From an uncultured Bacteroidota bacterium (GTDB lineage: Bacteria; Bacteroidota; Bacteroidia; AKYH767-A; OLB10), in the NCBI GenBank assembly GCA_900696575.1, contig CAADHD010000010.1, forward strand, positions 62,001 to 126,000: DNA of 64,000 nt. The letters are read 5' to 3'. The translations under genes were made by a program, and so were the position numbers. How positions within the stretch are numbered: the first letter of the stretch is position 1; each line of letters begins with the position of its first letter. Shown piece by piece: positions 20,102-41,936 of the stretch. A model generated the notes under the pieces. That model worked only from the letters and a program-made list of their open reading frames with translations, had not been told where the DNA came from and did not search any database.

Positions 20102-20374
20102 TCAATCCACCTTATCATGTATAAAATCGCCCGATGCTTTAGGCTTGAAATAGGTGAGTTTAATAGCGCGGGCTTTGTTGCGGAACAGCGGAGGAACCGA
20201 CAATAATGCTTTCTCATGGCTGTCGGCCTCTACAAATGCATAGGCATGATGATCGTTGTCGTAACAACCCCACTCAAAGTGAGTGAAAAACGATGCATGA
20301 AACTCTCGGAACTGCTTAACGGTATGGCGGCAGTCTTCGGCTGTATGTTCGGAGATGATAAGGTAGCGATCCAT
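20102..20374 (-). CDS. Conserved small protein, function unknown
   Basis: 90 residues from MDRYLIISEHTAEDC. The predicted alternation of strands and helices, with AYAFVEADSHEKALLSVPP late in the chain, resembles small ferredoxin-like alpha/beta proteins. A cysteine (DCRH) and several His/Asp residues are present but form no known motif. There is no signal peptide. The frame opens 15 codons earlier, but those residues look non-coding. Confidence 0.55.
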   Translation of the reverse strand: MDRYLIISEHTAEDCRHTVKQFREFHASFFTHFEWGCYDNDHHAYAFVEADSHEKALLSVPPLFRNKARAIKLTYFKPKASGDFIHDKVD

Positions 20375-20595: not shown

Positions 20596-22020
20596 ATGAA
20601 TGCCCCTTCCATAGATGATTTAAGACAGGTGATTGCATTGCGCGGTTTACCTGATGAGCATTTGCAATGGATATTGGAAAAGGCAGAATATGCAGAGTTT
20701 GAAGACGGTGCTGAGATGACACGCACCGGAGATGAAATTGATTCGCTGATGCTCGTAGTGGAGGGACGGGCTAAATTTTATCTGGATGTAAACGGAAAGC
20801 TCGTATCATATCACACTTTTGAAAATGATGAAAGCACAGGCGGAACCGCAGGATTATTACCTTATTCGCGTATGAAAAGCTCCCCCGGATTTGCTTATGC
20901 GGAAGGGAAGATAAGAGTTTACAAGCTGCATAAAAAGTATTTTCAGGAACTGGAACAACTCAGCCCCGAATTAATACAACGGCTTATCGGTTATATGACG
21001 GAACGGGCAAGATACTTTGCCACCCAACAGTTGCAGCATGAGAAAGTAAATGCCTTAGGACAATTAGCAGCCGGCATAGCGCATGAATTGAATAATCCCG
21101 CTGCAGCTATTAACCGTATTGCTTCAGAACTGAATAAACGATTGCGCTGCAATTATGAATTTACGGAAAGAATGCTGCTTGATAATGTTACCGCCCCGCA
21201 GATTAAAGAAATTGTCAAGTTAGTAGATGAAAAACAAAAGCAAACCGGAAATGTGAAACTTTCTCCGCTTAAAAGAATCGAACTGGAAGATACGTTGATT
21301 GACTGGATGCAGCAAAACGGCATGGAAGCAAAACCCTCCATAGCCGAAACTTTTGCAGGGTCTGGTTATACAACCGATGACCTTGAAATAATTAAGACCA
21401 TTGCCGGAGAAAAAGCCATGAAGAACCTTATTAACTGGCTTGAAAACTTAGTGGTATCGCAATCGGTGATTAAAGATCTGGATGAAGCCTCTTCGCGTAT
21501 TTCAACTTTGGTAGGTGCCATCCGCTCCCATGTTCACATGGACCGCACGAATGAAAAACAACCGACCGACATTCATACCGACATTGAAAATACATTGACG
21601 CTGCTTGGTCATAAACTGAGAGCGAAAAATATCAAGGTGATAAAAAATTTTTTACCCGATTTTCCGCAAGTGCCGGTTCATGTTGGCGAAATGAATCAGG
21701 TATGGACCAACCTGATTGATAATGCCATTCAGGCTATGAGCAATAAAGGCGAACTGACCATTGAAACCTGCCTTGATAACCACTTTGCAAGGATTAAGGT
21801 GATTGATAACGGACATGGCATACCCAAAGAAATTCAGTCAAAAATTTTTGACCCTTTTTTCACCACTAAAAAAATGGGAGAAGGAACAGGCATCGGGCTT
21901 GATTTGGTCAGAAGAATTATAACGCGCCACAACGGTGAAATAAAACTTAGGAGCGAACCGGGCAAAACGGAGTTCGCTATCTGCCTTCCGCTTGCTTCAT
22001 CTGAAAATAAAACGTCATGA
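20596..22020 (+). CDS. Sensor histidine kinase with cyclic-nucleotide-binding domain
   Basis: 474 residues, no membrane segment, so a cytoplasmic sensor. Residues about 15-135 form a Crp-like cNMP-binding domain (DGAEMTRTGDEIDSLMLVVEG). The dimerisation/phosphoacceptor box ALGQLAAGIAHELNNP has His163. The ATPase domain (about 335-470) has the N box NLIDNAIQAM, G1 DNGHGIP, F box FDPFFTTK and G2 GTGIGLDLV. The stop overlaps the next gene by four bases (ATGA), so kinase and response-regulator fusion are co-translated. Two adenylate cyclases are encoded 16 kb away, but a link to them is only a guess. Confidence 0.9.
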   Translation: MNAPSIDDLRQVIALRGLPDEHLQWILEKAEYAEFEDGAEMTRTGDEIDSLMLVVEGRAKFYLDVNGKLVSYHTFENDESTGGTAGLLPYSRMKSSPGFAYAEGKIRVYKLHKKYFQELEQLSPELIQRLIGYMTERARYFATQQLQHEKVNALGQLAAGIAHELNNPAAAINRIASELNKRLRCNYEFTERMLLDNVTAPQIKEIVKLVDEKQKQTGNVKLSPLKRIELEDTLIDWMQQNGMEAKPSIAETFAGSGYTTDDLEIIKTIAGEKAMKNLINWLENLVVSQSVIKDLDEASSRISTLVGAIRSHVHMDRTNEKQPTDIHTDIENTLTLLGHKLRAKNIKVIKNFLPDFPQVPVHVGEMNQVWTNLIDNAIQAMSNKGELTIETCLDNHFARIKVIDNGHGIPKEIQSKIFDPFFTTKKMGEGTGIGLDLVRRIITRHNGEIKLRSEPGKTEFAICLPLASSENKTS

Positions 22021-23678
22021 AACTTCCGTTTATCCTTATGGTGGATGATGATGCACAGGTGCTGGGCGCCATACAGCGCGATATGCGCAGCCGTTACCGG
22101 AATGATTACCGCCTTGCAGCTACGGCATCGGTCAATGAAGCCATTGAATTGCTGAAAGATTTAAAATTGAAAGGCGAAGTTGTGGCATTGATTATTTCTG
22201 ACCAGCGCATGCCCGAAATGGAAGGCGTTGATTTTCTCGAAATCGCCAAAGGAATTTTTCCTGAAACCAAACGAGTGCTGCTTACAGCTTATTCCGATAT
22301 AGAAGCTGCCATCAAAGCCATCAATACGGTTAACCTTAATTACTACCTGCTTAAGCCATGGCATCCACCCGAAGAAAAGCTGTATCCTGTTACAGATGAT
22401 TTATTGGATGAATGGCATGCATCTTTTAAACCCGATCATGAGGGAATCAAAGTAATCGGGTTTCAGTGGTCTCCCAAATCGCATAAGCTGAAAGAATTTT
22501 TATCGGGCAATCTTGTTCCTTATATATGGATAGATGCAGAAGAACATGAGGAAGCGAAGAAGCTGATGACCAGTGCCAACAGTTCGCACGATGAACTGCC
22601 ACTAGTGGTTTTGAAGGATGGAGTTGCTTTGAAAGACCCTTCGTTAATTGATGTTGCATCGAAGATCGGATTGCAGCAGAAACCAAAACAGGAAATGTAT
22701 GATGTGGCCATCATTGGTGCAGGCCCTGCAGGGCTGGCTGCTTCGGTTTACGGCTCCTGCGAAGGTTTGAAAACATTACTGATTGAACGCAGCAACCCGG
22801 GTGGTCAGGCAAGCAGCAGCACACGCATTGAAAATTATCTTGGGTTTCCGGCAGGTTTGTCAGGTGCCGAACTTTCGCGCAGGGCCATTGCTCAGACATT
22901 GCGCTTCGGCACCGAAATGCTGACTCCGCAAAGCGTGAACTCTATAAAAGTGAAAGACGGATACAAGATTATTGAAATGGAAGATGGCTCGGTGGCTCAC
23001 AGCAAAACAGTAGTGATCTCAACCGGGGTGGCATACAACAAACTGCCTGTTGAAGGGCTTGACAAATTTACCGGTGCCGGTGTGTATTACGGTTCGGCAT
23101 CTATAGAGGCACATGCCTGCCGAAATGAAACAGTGTTTATTGTAGGCGGAGGAAACTCGGCCTGCCAGGCAGCATTGGGTTTATGTCATATAGCCAAAGA
23201 GATTCACCTCGTCATCAGGCGTGAATCGCTTAAGCAAACGGCTGCCGATTATTTAGTGCGCAACCTTGCCAAAACGCCCAACATTTTTGTGCATGGCAGC
23301 ACAGAGTTGATTGGTACAACAGGCGATAAAGTGCTGGAAAGCATTACACTTAAAAATGCAGCCACCGGAGAAGAACAATCCGTTCCTGCCAAAGTACTGT
23401 TCATTTACATAGGTGCCACACCGGGTACGCAATGGCTTAACAACATAGTACTGAAAGATGAGAAGGGCTACATCATCACAGGCCGGGAACTGATGAAACT
23501 GAAAAATTTTCACACCTTCTGGAAGTTGGAACGCCAGCCCTATTTGCCCGAAGCCAGCGTACCGGGAATTTTTGCATCGGGCGATGTACGCTATACCGCC
23601 CTTACCGGTATCTCTTCAGCCGTTGGCGAAGGAGCAATGGCTATCCGTTTTGTGAGGAAGTATTTGATGGAAAATTAA
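22017..23678 (+). CDS. Response regulator fused to thioredoxin-like and thioredoxin-reductase-like domains
   Basis: 553 residues. The receiver domain (1-125) has acidic pocket D10-D12, phosphoacceptor Asp62 (SDQRMPEMEG), Thr90 and Lys113. Residues about 144-220 form a thioredoxin/glutaredoxin-like fold in which the CxxC position reads S152-P-K-S155. Residues about 226-553 are a low-molecular-weight thioredoxin-reductase-like flavoprotein with FAD motif GAGPAG (234-239), NAD(P) motif GGGNSA (377-382) and a C-terminal FAD motif (ASGDVRYTALTGISSAVGEGA). The site normally holding the redox CATC reads G359-SAS, so the catalytic disulfide is absent. Electron flow to a thiol therefore seems unlikely; a phosphorylation-controlled FAD/NAD(P)H sensor or oxidase is an inference. 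Confidence 0.9.
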   Translation: MKLPFILMVDDDAQVLGAIQRDMRSRYRNDYRLAATASVNEAIELLKDLKLKGEVVALIISDQRMPEMEGVDFLEIAKGIFPETKRVLLTAYSDIEAAIKAINTVNLNYYLLKPWHPPEEKLYPVTDDLLDEWHASFKPDHEGIKVIGFQWSPKSHKLKEFLSGNLVPYIWIDAEEHEEAKKLMTSANSSHDELPLVVLKDGVALKDPSLIDVASKIGLQQKPKQEMYDVAIIGAGPAGLAASVYGSCEGLKTLLIERSNPGGQASSSTRIENYLGFPAGLSGAELSRRAIAQTLRFGTEMLTPQSVNSIKVKDGYKIIEMEDGSVAHSKTVVISTGVAYNKLPVEGLDKFTGAGVYYGSASIEAHACRNETVFIVGGGNSACQAALGLCHIAKEIHLVIRRESLKQTAADYLVRNLAKTPNIFVHGSTELIGTTGDKVLESITLKNAATGEEQSVPAKVLFIYIGATPGTQWLNNIVLKDEKGYIITGRELMKLKNFHTFWKLERQPYLPEASVPGIFASGDVRYTALTGISSAVGEGAMAIRFVRKYLMEN

Positions 23679-38571: not shown

Positions 38572-40626
38572 TTAGGCATTTTCCACAAAATACATATCAA
38601 TCTCTCCTTTATTCTTAGCCTGAATCTTTCCACGATGTACACAAGTGAATTTATTCTTCACCAATTCAAAGGTAGCCCCGCTGATATTGATCTTTCCGGT
38701 TTCGCCACTTGATTCCATCCTTGATGCAATGTTTACGGTATCGCCCCAAATGTCGTAGGCGTATTTTTTGATACCGACAATTCCGGCAACTACCGGCCCG
38801 GTATGAATGCCGATTCTGATTTCGAAAAAAGATTTTCCGGCTGTTTTGCGTACTTGAGATTCACGTAACATAAACGCACGGATATCCATGGCAGCACGAA
38901 TGGTATCTTCTGCATTGGTTACAGTAGGAACAGGCAGCCCTCCGGCACACATATATGCATCGCCAATGGTTTTAATTTTTTCAATACCATACTTAGATAT
39001 AATTTTATCAAACTCAATGTAGCAGAAATTAATTTCGTTTACCAGGTCTTGTGGCGATAATTTTTCGGCAGTAACGGTGAAGTCAATAAAATCAGTAAAC
39101 ATCACTGTTACTTCCTTGTAATGCCTTGCCCGGGTGGTGCCTTTCGATTTAAGCTCAGCTGCTATTTCGGCAGGTAAAATATTTAAAAGCAACTCATCAC
39201 TTCGCTTCTTCTCGTTCCCAATTTGTTTTTTCTTCCTGTTGTTCAAATAGGCAAAAATCATAACCAGCAGCAAGCCTGCCAATAAAAAATATTTCTGTTG
39301 TCTGTTTTTTTTAATTTCAATCATGGAAAGCGCCTGTTTCTTTTCCTGTTCAATTTTAATCAACGTTTCTCTTTTCTCGTACTCGTACTGAAATTGTGAT
39401 TTTAAAGCGGCTTTTCGGTTCAGGTCGTTTTGAATGCTGTCGCGCATGGTGATGTATAAATCATACATAAGAAAGGCCTGATGCCAGTCGCCTTTATCTC
39501 GGTATAATTTGAGAAGATTTCCGGCAGCATTGCCAATAGGAGCAGGAAAGCCGAGTTCCATTGCTTTTTTTAAGGAAAACTGCAGATAAGTTTGCGCTTC
39601 GGGGTAATTTTTCTTTTCGAGGAAAGAGGCCCCCAACAGGTTAGCAACCGTTGCCGTTCCCAGTTTATCGCCCAACTCCTGAAAAATGGCCAGGCTTTTA
39701 CGGAAAGCGTTCTCTGCTTCAGCTATGGCCGAAGTTTTCTGATAAACGATTCCTTTGTTTTTAAGAGTATAGGCAATTCCCTGCTTGTCATCCAACTCTG
39801 TTCTTAACGCCAATGCATTGTTGAAATAATGCAAAGCGGAATCAAATCTTGAATTTTCTTCATGCATTCCGCCAAGGCCGTTATAAATATAACCCATACT
39901 GTATTTGCTGTTAGTAGCCACTGCCTTTTCCAATGCCCGTCTGTAATAAGCAAACGCACTCTCATACTCCTTTTGTTCCCGATATACAGCTCCTATATTT
40001 TGCATTGCCGTTATTACCCCATCGTTCGATTTTAAATTTTCTTCAATAAACAGCGACCGCTGGTAATAATTCAGAGCTTCTTCAATCCTGCCCTGACCAG
40101 CATAAATTAAACCGATATTGTTAAGGATAGTTGAGATGCCAGCGCTGTCGTTTAAAGTTTTTCTGATTTCCAGACTTCGAAAATTATAATTTAAAGCTTC
40201 TTCGATTCTTCCCTGATCTTTATAAATAGCAGCAATATTGCCAAGCAAGATTGCTTCATTTTTTTTGTCCTTGGATTTTCTGGCCAGTTCCAGAGCATTA
40301 TAATTAAAATCAAGCGCTTTGCCAATGTTGCCGCTCTGCTCATATAAATAAGCCAGCCACCCGTAGGCATTGGTAAGCCCCACACTATATCTTATTTGTT
40401 TTGAAATTTTTTCTGCCTCTTCAAAGTATGGGATGGCAGCGGCAGGAGAATGCTGGTAGTAGCCTTCCGCTATTTTGAACAGCAACTGAACTTTTGCTGT
40501 ATCCGGCAAAGAATTGTCTAGCAATTTCTTCAGAGAGTCGGTTTCCGATTCTTTCAGCGGCCATGCATAGGTAATGCTGCACATGCCAAAGAGATAAATC
40601 CAAATGAGAATAAAGTGTTTATTCAT
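38572..40626 (-). CDS. TPR-repeat class III adenylate cyclase
   Basis: 684 residues. A signal peptide (MNKHFILIWIYLFGMCSITYAW), about nine tetratricopeptide repeats (roughly 40-380, for example ALNYYQRSLFIEENL), a coiled segment, one membrane helix (YFLLAGLLLVMIFAYL) and a cytoplasmic catalytic domain (about 500-684). Metal aspartates lie in VMFTDFIDF and IGDAYM. Adenine-selecting Lys (EKIKTIGDAY) and Asp (YDIWGDTVN), and the transition-state Asn/Arg in NIASRM, indicate an active ATP cyclase. The TPRs would lie in the periplasm and could sense proteins there. It is followed by a related cyclase. Confidence 0.9.
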   Translation of the reverse strand: MNKHFILIWIYLFGMCSITYAWPLKESETDSLKKLLDNSLPDTAKVQLLFKIAEGYYQHSPAAAIPYFEEAEKISKQIRYSVGLTNAYGWLAYLYEQSGNIGKALDFNYNALELARKSKDKKNEAILLGNIAAIYKDQGRIEEALNYNFRSLEIRKTLNDSAGISTILNNIGLIYAGQGRIEEALNYYQRSLFIEENLKSNDGVITAMQNIGAVYREQKEYESAFAYYRRALEKAVATNSKYSMGYIYNGLGGMHEENSRFDSALHYFNNALALRTELDDKQGIAYTLKNKGIVYQKTSAIAEAENAFRKSLAIFQELGDKLGTATVANLLGASFLEKKNYPEAQTYLQFSLKKAMELGFPAPIGNAAGNLLKLYRDKGDWHQAFLMYDLYITMRDSIQNDLNRKAALKSQFQYEYEKRETLIKIEQEKKQALSMIEIKKNRQQKYFLLAGLLLVMIFAYLNNRKKKQIGNEKKRSDELLLNILPAEIAAELKSKGTTRARHYKEVTVMFTDFIDFTVTAEKLSPQDLVNEINFCYIEFDKIISKYGIEKIKTIGDAYMCAGGLPVPTVTNAEDTIRAAMDIRAFMLRESQVRKTAGKSFFEIRIGIHTGPVVAGIVGIKKYAYDIWGDTVNIASRMESSGETGKINISGATFELVKNKFTCVHRGKIQAKNKGEIDMYFVENA
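38672..38741 (-). repeat. 70-bp block identical to 40753-40822
   Basis: An exact 70-base match within the catalytic domains of the two adjacent cyclases, spanning the codons for TVNIASRMESSGETGKINIS and flanks. It is longer than protein conservation alone needs, because third codon positions also agree. Confidence 0.85.
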
Positions 40627-40652
40627 AATCAACCTGAAAGTAAACCCGATAA

Positions 40653-41936
40653 TTAAACATTACTGACAAAGTACATATCCACTTCACCGATATTTTTAGC
40701 CATCACTTTGCCGCGAAACTCGCAGCGGAAACGGTTTTTAATCAGTTCATAAGTAGCCCCGCTGATATTGATCTTTCCGGTTTCGCCACTTGATTCCATC
40801 CTTGATGCAATGTTTACGGTATTGCCCCAAATATCATAAGCAAACTTTTTGGTACCTACAATACCTGCAACTACCGGTCCGGTATGAATACCTGTTCGTA
40901 ATTCAAAAAACGGCTTTCCCTGCTGTTGTCTTTCTGCCATATAATTACTCATGAATGTCTTAATATCCAAAGCTGCAGAAATGACATCAAACGGATGCGT
41001 TGTGTTTTCTTCAGGAATACCACCGGCACACATATAGGCATCGCCAACGGTTTTTATCTTTTCCACTCCGTTTTTTTCCATGATCAGATCGAATGCGCTG
41101 TAACAGTAATTTATTTCTGCAACGAGTTCTTCAGGTGTCATCTTTTCCGAAATGCCGGTGAAGTTTTTAAAGTCAGTGAACATAACAGTTGCTGATTCGA
41201 AAAACTTTGCTTTGGCGCTGCCGGTGGCTTTCAGTTCTTCGGCTGTTTCTTCGGGGAGGATATTCAGCAGCAGGTTGTCTGACTTTTGTTTCTCTTCGGC
41301 AATCAGCTTATTTCTTTTCTCCAATAAATTTTCCTGTCTTGCATTTTCAGATTTGAAGTAGAACACAATAAGGAAGATGATAACAAACATGGTTACATGA
41401 TTCACCACATACAGGTTTTCACCATCCGGCATGAACAGCACCGGATTCATTACTGCGAAAGAGTATTTGCAAACGGCAAAAGCAACAGCATTCAACAGAA
41501 AATAGGAAACCACGGTAATCCATTGCCTGAAAAAAAGCATGGAGGCTATACTGCCGGCAACAAGAATGTATTCTGCTGCATCTACTTCACCATGAGTGAT
41601 GGCAAATACGGAATAACAAATGACATTATAAATGTTGAAGAAATGGCAGGCGGCCAGATGCCTGTGAAAATGATTCAGCGAAAGTGTGATAAGCATTGCC
41701 ACTACTCCCTGAAAACTTTCCCAGAAAGTAAGCCGGTGTGCTTTGTCGGAATAGCCGATGCAATACAAAGCGAGAATAATGGCCGACATGGCACAGATGC
41801 CATTCAGCAATCTTGAACGTTTCTTTTCCCAGTCGCTTAGGGAATCGGTAATACCGATGGTGATGATTCTTTGCCATATACGGGCAATGAACCAACGTTC
41901 TTTTTTCTCAGCAGTATGAATTGCCGCAGTATTCAT
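40653..41936 (-). CDS. Membrane-bound class III adenylate cyclase
   Basis: 427 residues. The N-terminal half (about 45-205) has about six membrane helices. A short linker coil (ENARQENLLEKRNKLIAEEKQ) follows, then a catalytic domain (about 240-427). Active-site residues are complete: Asp in VMFTDFKNF and VGDAYM, Lys in EKIKTVGDAY, Asp in YDIWGNTVN, Asn/Arg in NIASRM. It probably makes cAMP as a homodimer. It shares the linker motif LLLNILPEETAEEL with the neighbouring cyclase, implying tandem duplication with new sensor parts. Confidence 0.9.
   Translation of the reverse strand: MNTAAIHTAEKKERWFIARIWQRIITIGITDSLSDWEKKRSRLLNGICAMSAIILALYCIGYSDKAHRLTFWESFQGVVAMLITLSLNHFHRHLAACHFFNIYNVICYSVFAITHGEVDAAEYILVAGSIASMLFFRQWITVVSYFLLNAVAFAVCKYSFAVMNPVLFMPDGENLYVVNHVTMFVIIFLIVFYFKSENARQENLLEKRNKLIAEEKQKSDNLLLNILPEETAEELKATGSAKAKFFESATVMFTDFKNFTGISEKMTPEELVAEINYCYSAFDLIMEKNGVEKIKTVGDAYMCAGGIPEENTTHPFDVISAALDIKTFMSNYMAERQQQGKPFFELRTGIHTGPVVAGIVGTKKFAYDIWGNTVNIASRMESSGETGKINISGATYELIKNRFRCEFRGKVMAKNIGEVDMYFVSNV
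40753..40822 (-). repeat. 70-bp block identical to 38672-38741
   Basis: The second member of the exact 70-base direct repeat described at 38672; same strand and same reading frame. Confidence 0.85.

What the first reader, a model, noticed from the sequence alone, without database searches (positions are those of the whole stretch)
20596..23678. Two-component pair whose regulator is a thiol-redox fusion with every redox cysteine lost
The regulator joins a receiver with intact Asp62 to a thioredoxin-like domain whose CxxC site reads S152-P-K-S155, and to a thioredoxin-reductase-like flavoprotein whose CATC site reads GSAS at 359-362. FAD and NAD(P) motifs remain. The partner kinase has a cNMP-binding input and overlaps it by 4 bases. 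Similar receiver/reductase fusions are known in databases, but their job is not described. Inference: a phosphorylation-gated NAD(P)H/FAD enzyme or sensor that does not use a dithiol.
Basis: partly seen in the sequence, partly recalled or inferred. Interest (0 to 1): 0.66.

Follow-up and report, generated by a model that had tools for sequence, protein, structure and literature searches.

The report
Phosphorylation-gated flavoprotein lacking redox cysteines
The gene pair is a sensor kinase and its partner protein, which carries a look-alike of thioredoxin reductase that has no redox cysteines; it belongs to a large, uncharacterised bacterial family whose gene neighbours (a small zinc protein and potassium/proton antiporters) suggest it controls other proteins through bound NAD(P)H and flavin rather than by reducing disulfides.

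Summary
The kinase (20596-22020) overlaps by 4 bases a regulator (22017-23678) made of a receiver with intact Asp62, a glutaredoxin-like domain reading S152-P-K-S155, and a thioredoxin-reductase-like domain reading G359-S-A-S362. The cysteines are not lost in this gene alone. None of 110 aligned Bacteroidota/KSB1/Ignavibacteria sequences, nor relatives from Actinomycetota, Cyanobacteriota, Deinococcota and Pseudomonadota, keeps either CxxC. On a tree they form one clan against 33 CxxC-bearing TrxRs (support 100/100). The structure model has the flavin-reducing (FR) arrangement, so the NAD(P) and FAD sites face each other. Two things are new here. First, the family is tightly linked to small zf-UBP zinc proteins: 27 of 30 zf-UBP genomes carry it (Fisher p=4e-23). 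Second, in one Bacteroidota family the regulator lies beside a Kef-type (CPA2+KTN) antiporter in 16 of 16 loci; in two others the antiporter is itself fused to zf-UBP. Most likely it is a non-dithiol NAD(P)H/FAD signalling flavoprotein, gated by phosphorylation, working like the Kef ancillary flavoprotein KefF. The window genome has no zf-UBP and no nearby Kef, so its own target is unknown.

The parts
20596..22020 (+). sensor histidine kinase, 474 aa, partner of the regulator
   Evidence: HATPase_c 4e-25; H163, N-box, G1 and G2 boxes conserved among 115 aligned kinases; same-strand neighbour of the regulator in 101 of 109 loci
20695..20952 (+). cNMP-binding-like input domain of the kinase (aa 34-119), cassette not canonical
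   Evidence: PF00027 21.5 bits, below the curated cut-off 27.5; 0 of 115 kinases with a canonical phosphate-binding cassette
21082..21084 (+). codon of the phospho-accepting His163 (HELNNPA box)
   Evidence: conserved column in the kinase alignment
22017..23678 (+). regulator: receiver + glutaredoxin-like domain + TrxR-like flavoprotein, 553 aa
22032..22370 (+). receiver domain (aa 6-118)
   Evidence: PF00072 4.5e-14; D10-D12, D62, T90, K113 invariant
22200..22202 (+). codon of Asp62, phosphorylation site
   Evidence: D in 110 of 110
22446..22667 (+). glutaredoxin/mycoredoxin-like domain (aa 144-217)
   Evidence: TIGR02200 1.6e-8; profile vs mycoredoxin-1 2lqo 5.5e-7; model fold Z 12.8 to 3zit, Z 11 to glutaredoxins
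22470..22481 (+). S152-P-K-S155 in place of the redoxin CxxC
   Evidence: S152 110/110; 155 S 99, A 6, T 5
22698..23666 (+). thioredoxin-reductase-like FAD/NAD(P) domain (aa 228-550)
   Evidence: TIGR01292 1.2e-66 but 224.6 bits, under the cut-off 343.45; model Z 34.3 to TrxR 5mh4
22716..22733 (+). FAD dinucleotide motif GAGPAG (aa 234-239)
   Evidence: G234, G236, P237, G239 invariant
23091..23102 (+). G359-S-A-S362 in place of the TrxR CxxC, followed by invariant E364-A365
   Evidence: G359, E364, A365 110/110; cross-phylum alignment
23145..23162 (+). NAD(P) motif GGGNSA (aa 377-382)
   Evidence: invariant or nearly so
20102..20374 (-). 90-aa His/Cys protein, divergently transcribed; possible accessory of the window's subclade
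   Evidence: homologue next to the regulator in L006, L008, L009, L018, L086, L146; no Pfam match

Best explanation
The pair is a two-component system whose regulator has a flavoprotein as its output instead of a DNA-binding domain. Shown: the receiver is intact; the glutaredoxin-like and TrxR-like domains keep their folds and the FAD and NAD(P) motifs, but not one redox cysteine pair; this holds across the whole clan. Inferred: NAD(P)H reduces, or simply occupies, the FAD site without a dithiol step; phosphorylation of Asp62 by the partner kinase changes how the flavoprotein meets a partner; the output is a protein-protein signal and/or electron transfer to a non-thiol acceptor. Elsewhere that partner is most likely the small zf-UBP zinc protein and, through it, a Kef-type K+/H+ antiporter, in the manner of KefF, the flavoprotein subunit of E. 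coli KefC. In the window genome zf-UBP is absent and no Kef gene is near; the adjacent 90-aa His/Cys protein may take zf-UBP's place (weak). The invariant Ser152, in a fold shared with tau-class GSTs, could be a low-molecular-weight thiol or adduct site (speculative).
For: No CxxC in 110/110 close and about 20 cross-phylum relatives. One clan, 100/100. A separate canonical CATC TrxR in the same genome (L002), so housekeeping thioredoxin reduction is covered. FR-like model. Receiver residues invariant; kinase adjacent in 101/109 loci. zf-UBP in 30/296 Bacteroidota genomes, 27 of them with this family, against 18 of 266 without zf-UBP; p=4e-23. 27/28 plasmid records with the two genes within 3 kb, in Alpha- and Betaproteobacteria, Actinomycetota and Gemmatimonadota. 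Kef-type antiporter 1.6-2.6 kb from the regulator in 16/16 loci of family f24; antiporter-KTN-zf-UBP fusion beside kinase and regulator in L134-L136. KefF precedent: an NAD(P)H flavoprotein whose enzyme activity is not needed for KefC activation (PMC10224563).
Against: No biochemistry exists in anything read here. The Kef link is seen in three Bacteroidota families only (f24, f30, f42), not in the window's class. Window and subclade lack zf-UBP. zf-UBP also occurs with Kef without the regulator (L137, L139, L140; Deinococcus L199, L200). Related genomes within a family are not independent. AlphaFold might favour FR for any TrxR; no control could be folded. Linkage does not show that proteins touch.
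Confidence: 0.45

Rival explanations
1. It is a working non-dithiol oxidoreductase: NAD(P)H reduces FAD, and FAD passes electrons to a specific acceptor (ferredoxin, a haem protein, a quinone or oxygen). The receiver only switches activity.
For: TrxR-like ferredoxin/flavodoxin reductases also lack CxxC and are active (PMC10294844). FR-like model. FAD and NAD motifs intact. A truncated-haemoglobin gene (named from sequence) sits just upstream of the pair in five loci, and one gene further up in L044.
Against: No single acceptor gene is shared across loci; the shared neighbours are a kinase and a zinc-finger protein. The acceptor would have to be general.
Confidence: 0.3
2. It is a pseudoenzyme: a scaffold that keeps the folds for binding but does no redox chemistry, switched only by phosphorylation.
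For: Both catalytic sites are gone together in the whole clan; KefF activates KefC without needing its enzyme activity (PMC10224563).
Against: FAD and NAD(P) motifs and the residues round the former CxxC (Y357, Y358, G359, E364, A365) are invariant in 110 sequences, which argues for bound cofactors.
Confidence: 0.15
3. Other cysteines took over the dithiol role, at least in the window's subclade: Cys248 and Cys383, with Cys368 near the old site.
For: C248 and C383 occur together in 23/23 members of the subclade and 0/87 others, along with R531G and M409A/S410A. C368 is C in 85/110.
Against: This is one clade, so one evolutionary event; outside it no conserved pair exists, so the family function cannot depend on it. 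C368 is often F, T, V or I. Distances in the model could not be measured.
Confidence: 0.07

Closest known systems
REC-thioredoxin reductase response regulators ('Mycobacterium-like combination' in PMC5847659)
   Same: same kind of domain combination; the window protein is one of these
   Different: that paper names the architecture only; loss of both CxxC sites and the zf-UBP/Kef context are not described in what I could search
'cyclic nucleotide-binding domain-containing thioredoxin-disulfide reductase' (record annotation, e.g. L120, L127, L129)
   Same: same redoxin + TrxR-like core, also without CxxC
   Different: cNMP domain fused to the enzyme instead of a receiver; the name wrongly implies disulfide reduction
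Thioredoxin reductase (TIGR01292)
   Same: fold, FAD and NAD(P) motifs, 25-33% identity
   Different: no CxxC; score below the family cut-off; one-residue insertion at the site; separate clan
AhpF
   Same: redoxin-like part ahead of a TrxR-like part
   Different: AhpF has two Trx-like folds and keeps its cysteines; no receiver
TrxR-like ferredoxin/flavodoxin-NADP reductases
   Same: TrxR fold without CxxC
   Different: lower similarity; no redoxin-like or receiver domain
Mycoredoxin-1 / glutaredoxins
   Same: fold and best sequence match of the middle domain
   Different: CxxC replaced by SPxS
KefF/KefG ancillary subunits of KefC/KefB
   Same: NAD(P)H flavoprotein encoded beside a CPA2+KTN antiporter (in some lineages)
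   Different: KefF is a small FMN flavodoxin-fold quinone reductase, unrelated in fold; no receiver

Membership tests
Thioredoxin reductase | redox-active CxxC in the NADPH domain | tested here: not met
   G-S-A-S here; no CxxC in 110/110 sequences
Thioredoxin reductase | low-Mr TrxR fold with FAD and NAD(P) motifs | tested here: met
   Z 34.3, rmsd 2.0 A to 5mh4 over 301 residues; motifs invariant
Thioredoxin reductase | score over the curated TIGR01292 cut-off | tested here: not met
   224.6 bits against 343.45
Glutaredoxin/mycoredoxin | nucleophilic Cys of CxxC/CxxS | tested here: not met
   S152 in 110/110
Glutaredoxin/mycoredoxin | Trx/Grx fold | tested here: met
   model pLDDT 80; Z 12.8 to 3zit, Z 11.4-11.7 to cGrx1
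Two-component response regulator | acidic pocket, phospho-Asp, T/S and Lys of the receiver | tested here: met
   D10-D12, D62, T90, K113 invariant
Two-component response regulator | phosphotransfer from the neighbouring kinase | not testable with these tools
   only adjacency (101/109 loci)
Cyclic-nucleotide-binding domain (kinase input) | canonical phosphate-binding cassette (GE...RxA) | tested here: not met
   0 of 115 kinases by pattern; Pfam 21.5 bits under 27.5
TrxR-like FNR | no CxxC, FAD-stacking residue and other features typical of FNRs | not tested
   only the lack of CxxC was checked; similarity to FNR structures is lower than to TrxRs
Kef ancillary subunit (KefF/KefG) | flavodoxin-fold FMN protein bound to the KTN domain | tested here: not met
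   TrxR fold with FAD motif; binding not testable. It may work like KefF, but it is not a KefF

The most novel reading that the evidence does not exclude
A kinase-controlled, cysteine-free redoxin-TrxR flavoprotein is a general regulatory subunit that docks through zf-UBP zinc proteins on Kef-type K+/H+ antiporters. Phosphorylation state and NAD(P)H/flavin state (and perhaps a thiol or thiol adduct bound at Ser152) would together set potassium efflux: an undescribed electrophile/redox response spread over several phyla.
Probability: 0.22. Interest if true: 0.8.

Novelty: new variant of a known kind. Interest (0 to 1): 0.55.

Why it matters
Databases call these proteins thioredoxin-disulfide reductases, which their sequence rules out. 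They form a large clan with conserved partners (kinase, zf-UBP, in places Kef antiporters) and no known job. The gene fusions make a concrete, testable prediction about how bacteria might couple NAD(P)H/flavin state and phosphorylation to ion efflux.

Tried and rejected
Chance or mis-call of the cysteine loss: rejected. Loss restricted to this lineage: rejected (tree). A disabled copy of the housekeeping TrxR: rejected; the genome has its own CATC TrxR and this family is separate. AhpF membership: rejected on domain make-up and score. cNMP sensing by the kinase: not supported by the cassette pattern; a first pattern was too narrow and was widened, with the same result for the kinases. zf-UBP or a Kef gene hidden in the window or nearby: none; a DsbA-like Thioredoxin_4 protein in the own genome: none; the one Kef found in the genome is unlinked and only 24% identical. 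CxxC elsewhere in the family: CLSC in three Chitinophaga-type sequences, not at the active-site columns. Promoter/terminator scan: no signal above shuffles. Literature: no functional description found under several term sets; many subscription papers are not in that library. Genome-wide sampling could be centred only on genome handles, so sampling outside Bacteroidota relied mostly on plasmid records.

Full report
WHAT IS THERE. The regulator has a receiver (PF00072, aa 6-118), a redoxin-like domain (TIGR02200 mycoredoxin, aa 144-217) and a TrxR-like FAD/NAD(P) domain (TIGR01292, aa 228-550). Asp62, S152-P-K-S155 and G359-S-A-S362 are correct. The kinase has an intact H-box (His163), N, G1, F and G2 boxes, and a weak cNMP-like input.

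IS THE CYSTEINE LOSS SPECIAL TO THIS GENE? No. I gathered 80 loci from the genome collection and a sample of 296 genomes of the phylum, and aligned 110 proteins including the window's. No protein keeps CxxC at either site. Position 152 is Ser in 110/110, 155 is S/A/T, 359 is Gly in 110/110, and 362 varies. Asp62, Glu364 and Ala365 are invariant. Relatives from Cyanobacteriota, Deinococcota, Actinomycetota and Pseudomonadota, with a receiver, with a fused cNMP domain, or with neither, also lack both sites and read [YFWS]-Y-[GAW]-...-[ED]-[AV] where TrxR has the CATC region. A maximum-likelihood tree of the TrxR-like domain puts the 30 CxxC-less rows on one side and 33 CxxC rows on the other with support 100/100. 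The intact-receiver forms fall together (93/85, just below the strict threshold). The window's genome also has an ordinary CATC TrxR (L002). So this is a clan-wide trait; whether it is one ancient loss depends on the root, though TrxR ancestry makes loss the natural reading. The Ilyobacter Grx(CPYC)-TrxR(CATC) fusion L126 shows what an active ancestor of this architecture could have looked like (inference).

STRUCTURE. The AlphaFold model (mean pLDDT 87, pTM 0.69) matches TrxR structures best. Agreement is with the flavin-reducing state: 2.0 A rmsd over 301 residues to 5mh4 (Lactococcus TrxR, FR) and 2.5 A to 1f6m (the E. coli TrxR-thioredoxin complex, FR by general knowledge), against 7.2 A to 5mjk (the same Lactococcus enzyme, FO) and 7.4 A to 1trb. 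In this model the NAD(P) and FAD sites face each other, as an enzyme without a CxxC would need. The redoxin-like part, folded alone (pLDDT 80), is a glutaredoxin/mycoredoxin fold (Z 12.8 to 3zit; 2lqo by sequence 5.5e-7). Glutathione transferases, including tau-class ones whose catalytic residue is a Ser at about this place (general knowledge), are also among its matches. Because Ser152 is invariant in the intact-receiver proteins, it may be functional rather than a mere decayed Cys; this is inference.

PARTNERS. (a) The kinase: next to the regulator on the same strand in 101 of 109 loci, and in either gene order in other phyla. (b) zf-UBP: a small Zn-finger protein (PF02148) directly downstream in 24 of 109 loci. 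In 296 genomes of the phylum, 30 have zf-UBP above Pfam's cut-off, and 27 of these have the family, against 18 of 266 others (Fisher p=4e-23; genomes of a family are not independent, so the p-value overstates). In plasmids, 27 of 28 records where both appear in the printed lists have them within 3 kb, in Alpha- and Betaproteobacteria, Actinomycetota and Gemmatimonadota. (c) Kef-type antiporters: in Bacteroidota family f24 the order is antiporter (Na_H_Exchanger + TrkA_N) - DsbA-like (in many) - zf-UBP - kinase - regulator; all 16 f24 genomes with the full regulator have this antiporter 1.6-2.6 kb away. In f30/f42 genomes the antiporter itself carries zf-UBP at its C-terminus and sits next to kinase and regulator (L134-L136). 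The three zf-UBP genomes without the regulator all have zf-UBP beside or fused to such an antiporter (L137, L139, L140). Deinococcus plasmids also have the fused antiporter, without the regulator nearby.

WHAT THE WINDOW LACKS. The window genome has no zf-UBP and only one distant, unlinked Kef-type protein (24% identity; Pfam). The window's subclade (23 proteins from Chitinophagaceae, Ignavibacteria, KSB1 and others) has no zf-UBP neighbour. It carries 21 subclade-specific changes, among them a joint gain of Cys248 and Cys383 and loss of Arg531. A 90-aa His/Cys-rich protein (window 20102-20374, minus) sits beside the regulator in the window and in L006, L008, L009, L018, L086 and the distant L146; in the phylum sample close relatives of it are rare and only partly co-occur with the regulator. 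It may stand in for zf-UBP, but that is a guess.

HOW IT MOST LIKELY WORKS. A phosphorylatable flavoprotein without a dithiol relay can do two things: pass electrons to a non-thiol acceptor, or report NAD(P)H/flavin state by changing shape. The conserved neighbours are a kinase, a zinc-binding adaptor-like protein and, in some lineages, a Kef antiporter, not a constant electron acceptor, so I favour regulation of a partner protein. The KefC/KefF system gives a precedent: KefF is an NAD(P)H flavoprotein encoded beside KefC and needed for full activity, and mutations that cripple its enzyme activity do not stop activation (PMC10224563; PMC11150392). The present protein is not a KefF (different fold and cofactor motif); it may work like one. 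Steps shown: sequence, family-wide loss, predicted fold, linkage. Steps inferred: FAD and NAD(P)H binding, phosphotransfer, partner binding, effect on transport.

NOVELTY. [quoted passage not shown] I found no description of this clan's complete lack of both cysteine pairs or of its zf-UBP and Kef linkage; the paper library is partial. I therefore call it a new variant of a known kind, and the window pair itself an ordinary member of it.

Noticed in passing
window 20102-20374 (-): 90-aa protein with conserved HTxxxC, HFxWGC and H motifs, no Pfam match, adjacent to the regulator in several subclade loci (71-75% identical in L018 and L009).
   Followed up: partly
window 22017-23678, regulator aa 248, 383, 409-410, 531: In the window's subclade Cys248 and Cys383 were gained together (23/23 vs 0/87), with M409A, S410A, R531G: a specialised subclade spread over Chitinophagaceae, Ignavibacteria and KSB1, which suggests gene transfer.
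   Followed up: partly
window 38572-41936 (-): Two adjacent proteins that look like class III nucleotide cyclases (38572-40632 and 40653-41936), a possible cNMP source in the same window; family assignment from sequence by eye.
   Followed up: no
L027, L029, L030, L032, L036, L044: Truncated-haemoglobin-like gene (named by eye) just upstream of the kinase-regulator pair (one gene further up in L044).
   Followed up: no
L117:8559-10267: In Tsukamurella the operon regulator/kinase/zf-UBP is followed by S-(hydroxymethyl)mycothiol dehydrogenase and a metallo-hydrolase (formaldehyde/thiol-adduct detoxification).
   Followed up: no
L122, L128: zf-UBP + CxxC-less flavoprotein pairs lie beside ClpB/Clp ATPase, Hsp20 and thioredoxin genes on plasmids.
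   Followed up: no
L121, L125: Members with a degenerate receiver that lacks the normal phospho-Asp region; L125 comes from a record labelled 'Bacteriophage sp.' that is probably bacterial DNA.
   Followed up: no
L118:3484-8062: Caballeronia has kinase - regulator - kinase in a row, both kinases of the same family.
   Followed up: no
zf-UBP proteins aligned (L059, L117, L119, L122, L128, L130, L135, L138, L144, L145, L150): Bacterial zf-UBP proteins read CCDSS where eukaryotic ubiquitin-binding ones carry a pocket Arg (from memory), so they probably do not bind a ubiquitin tail.
   Followed up: no
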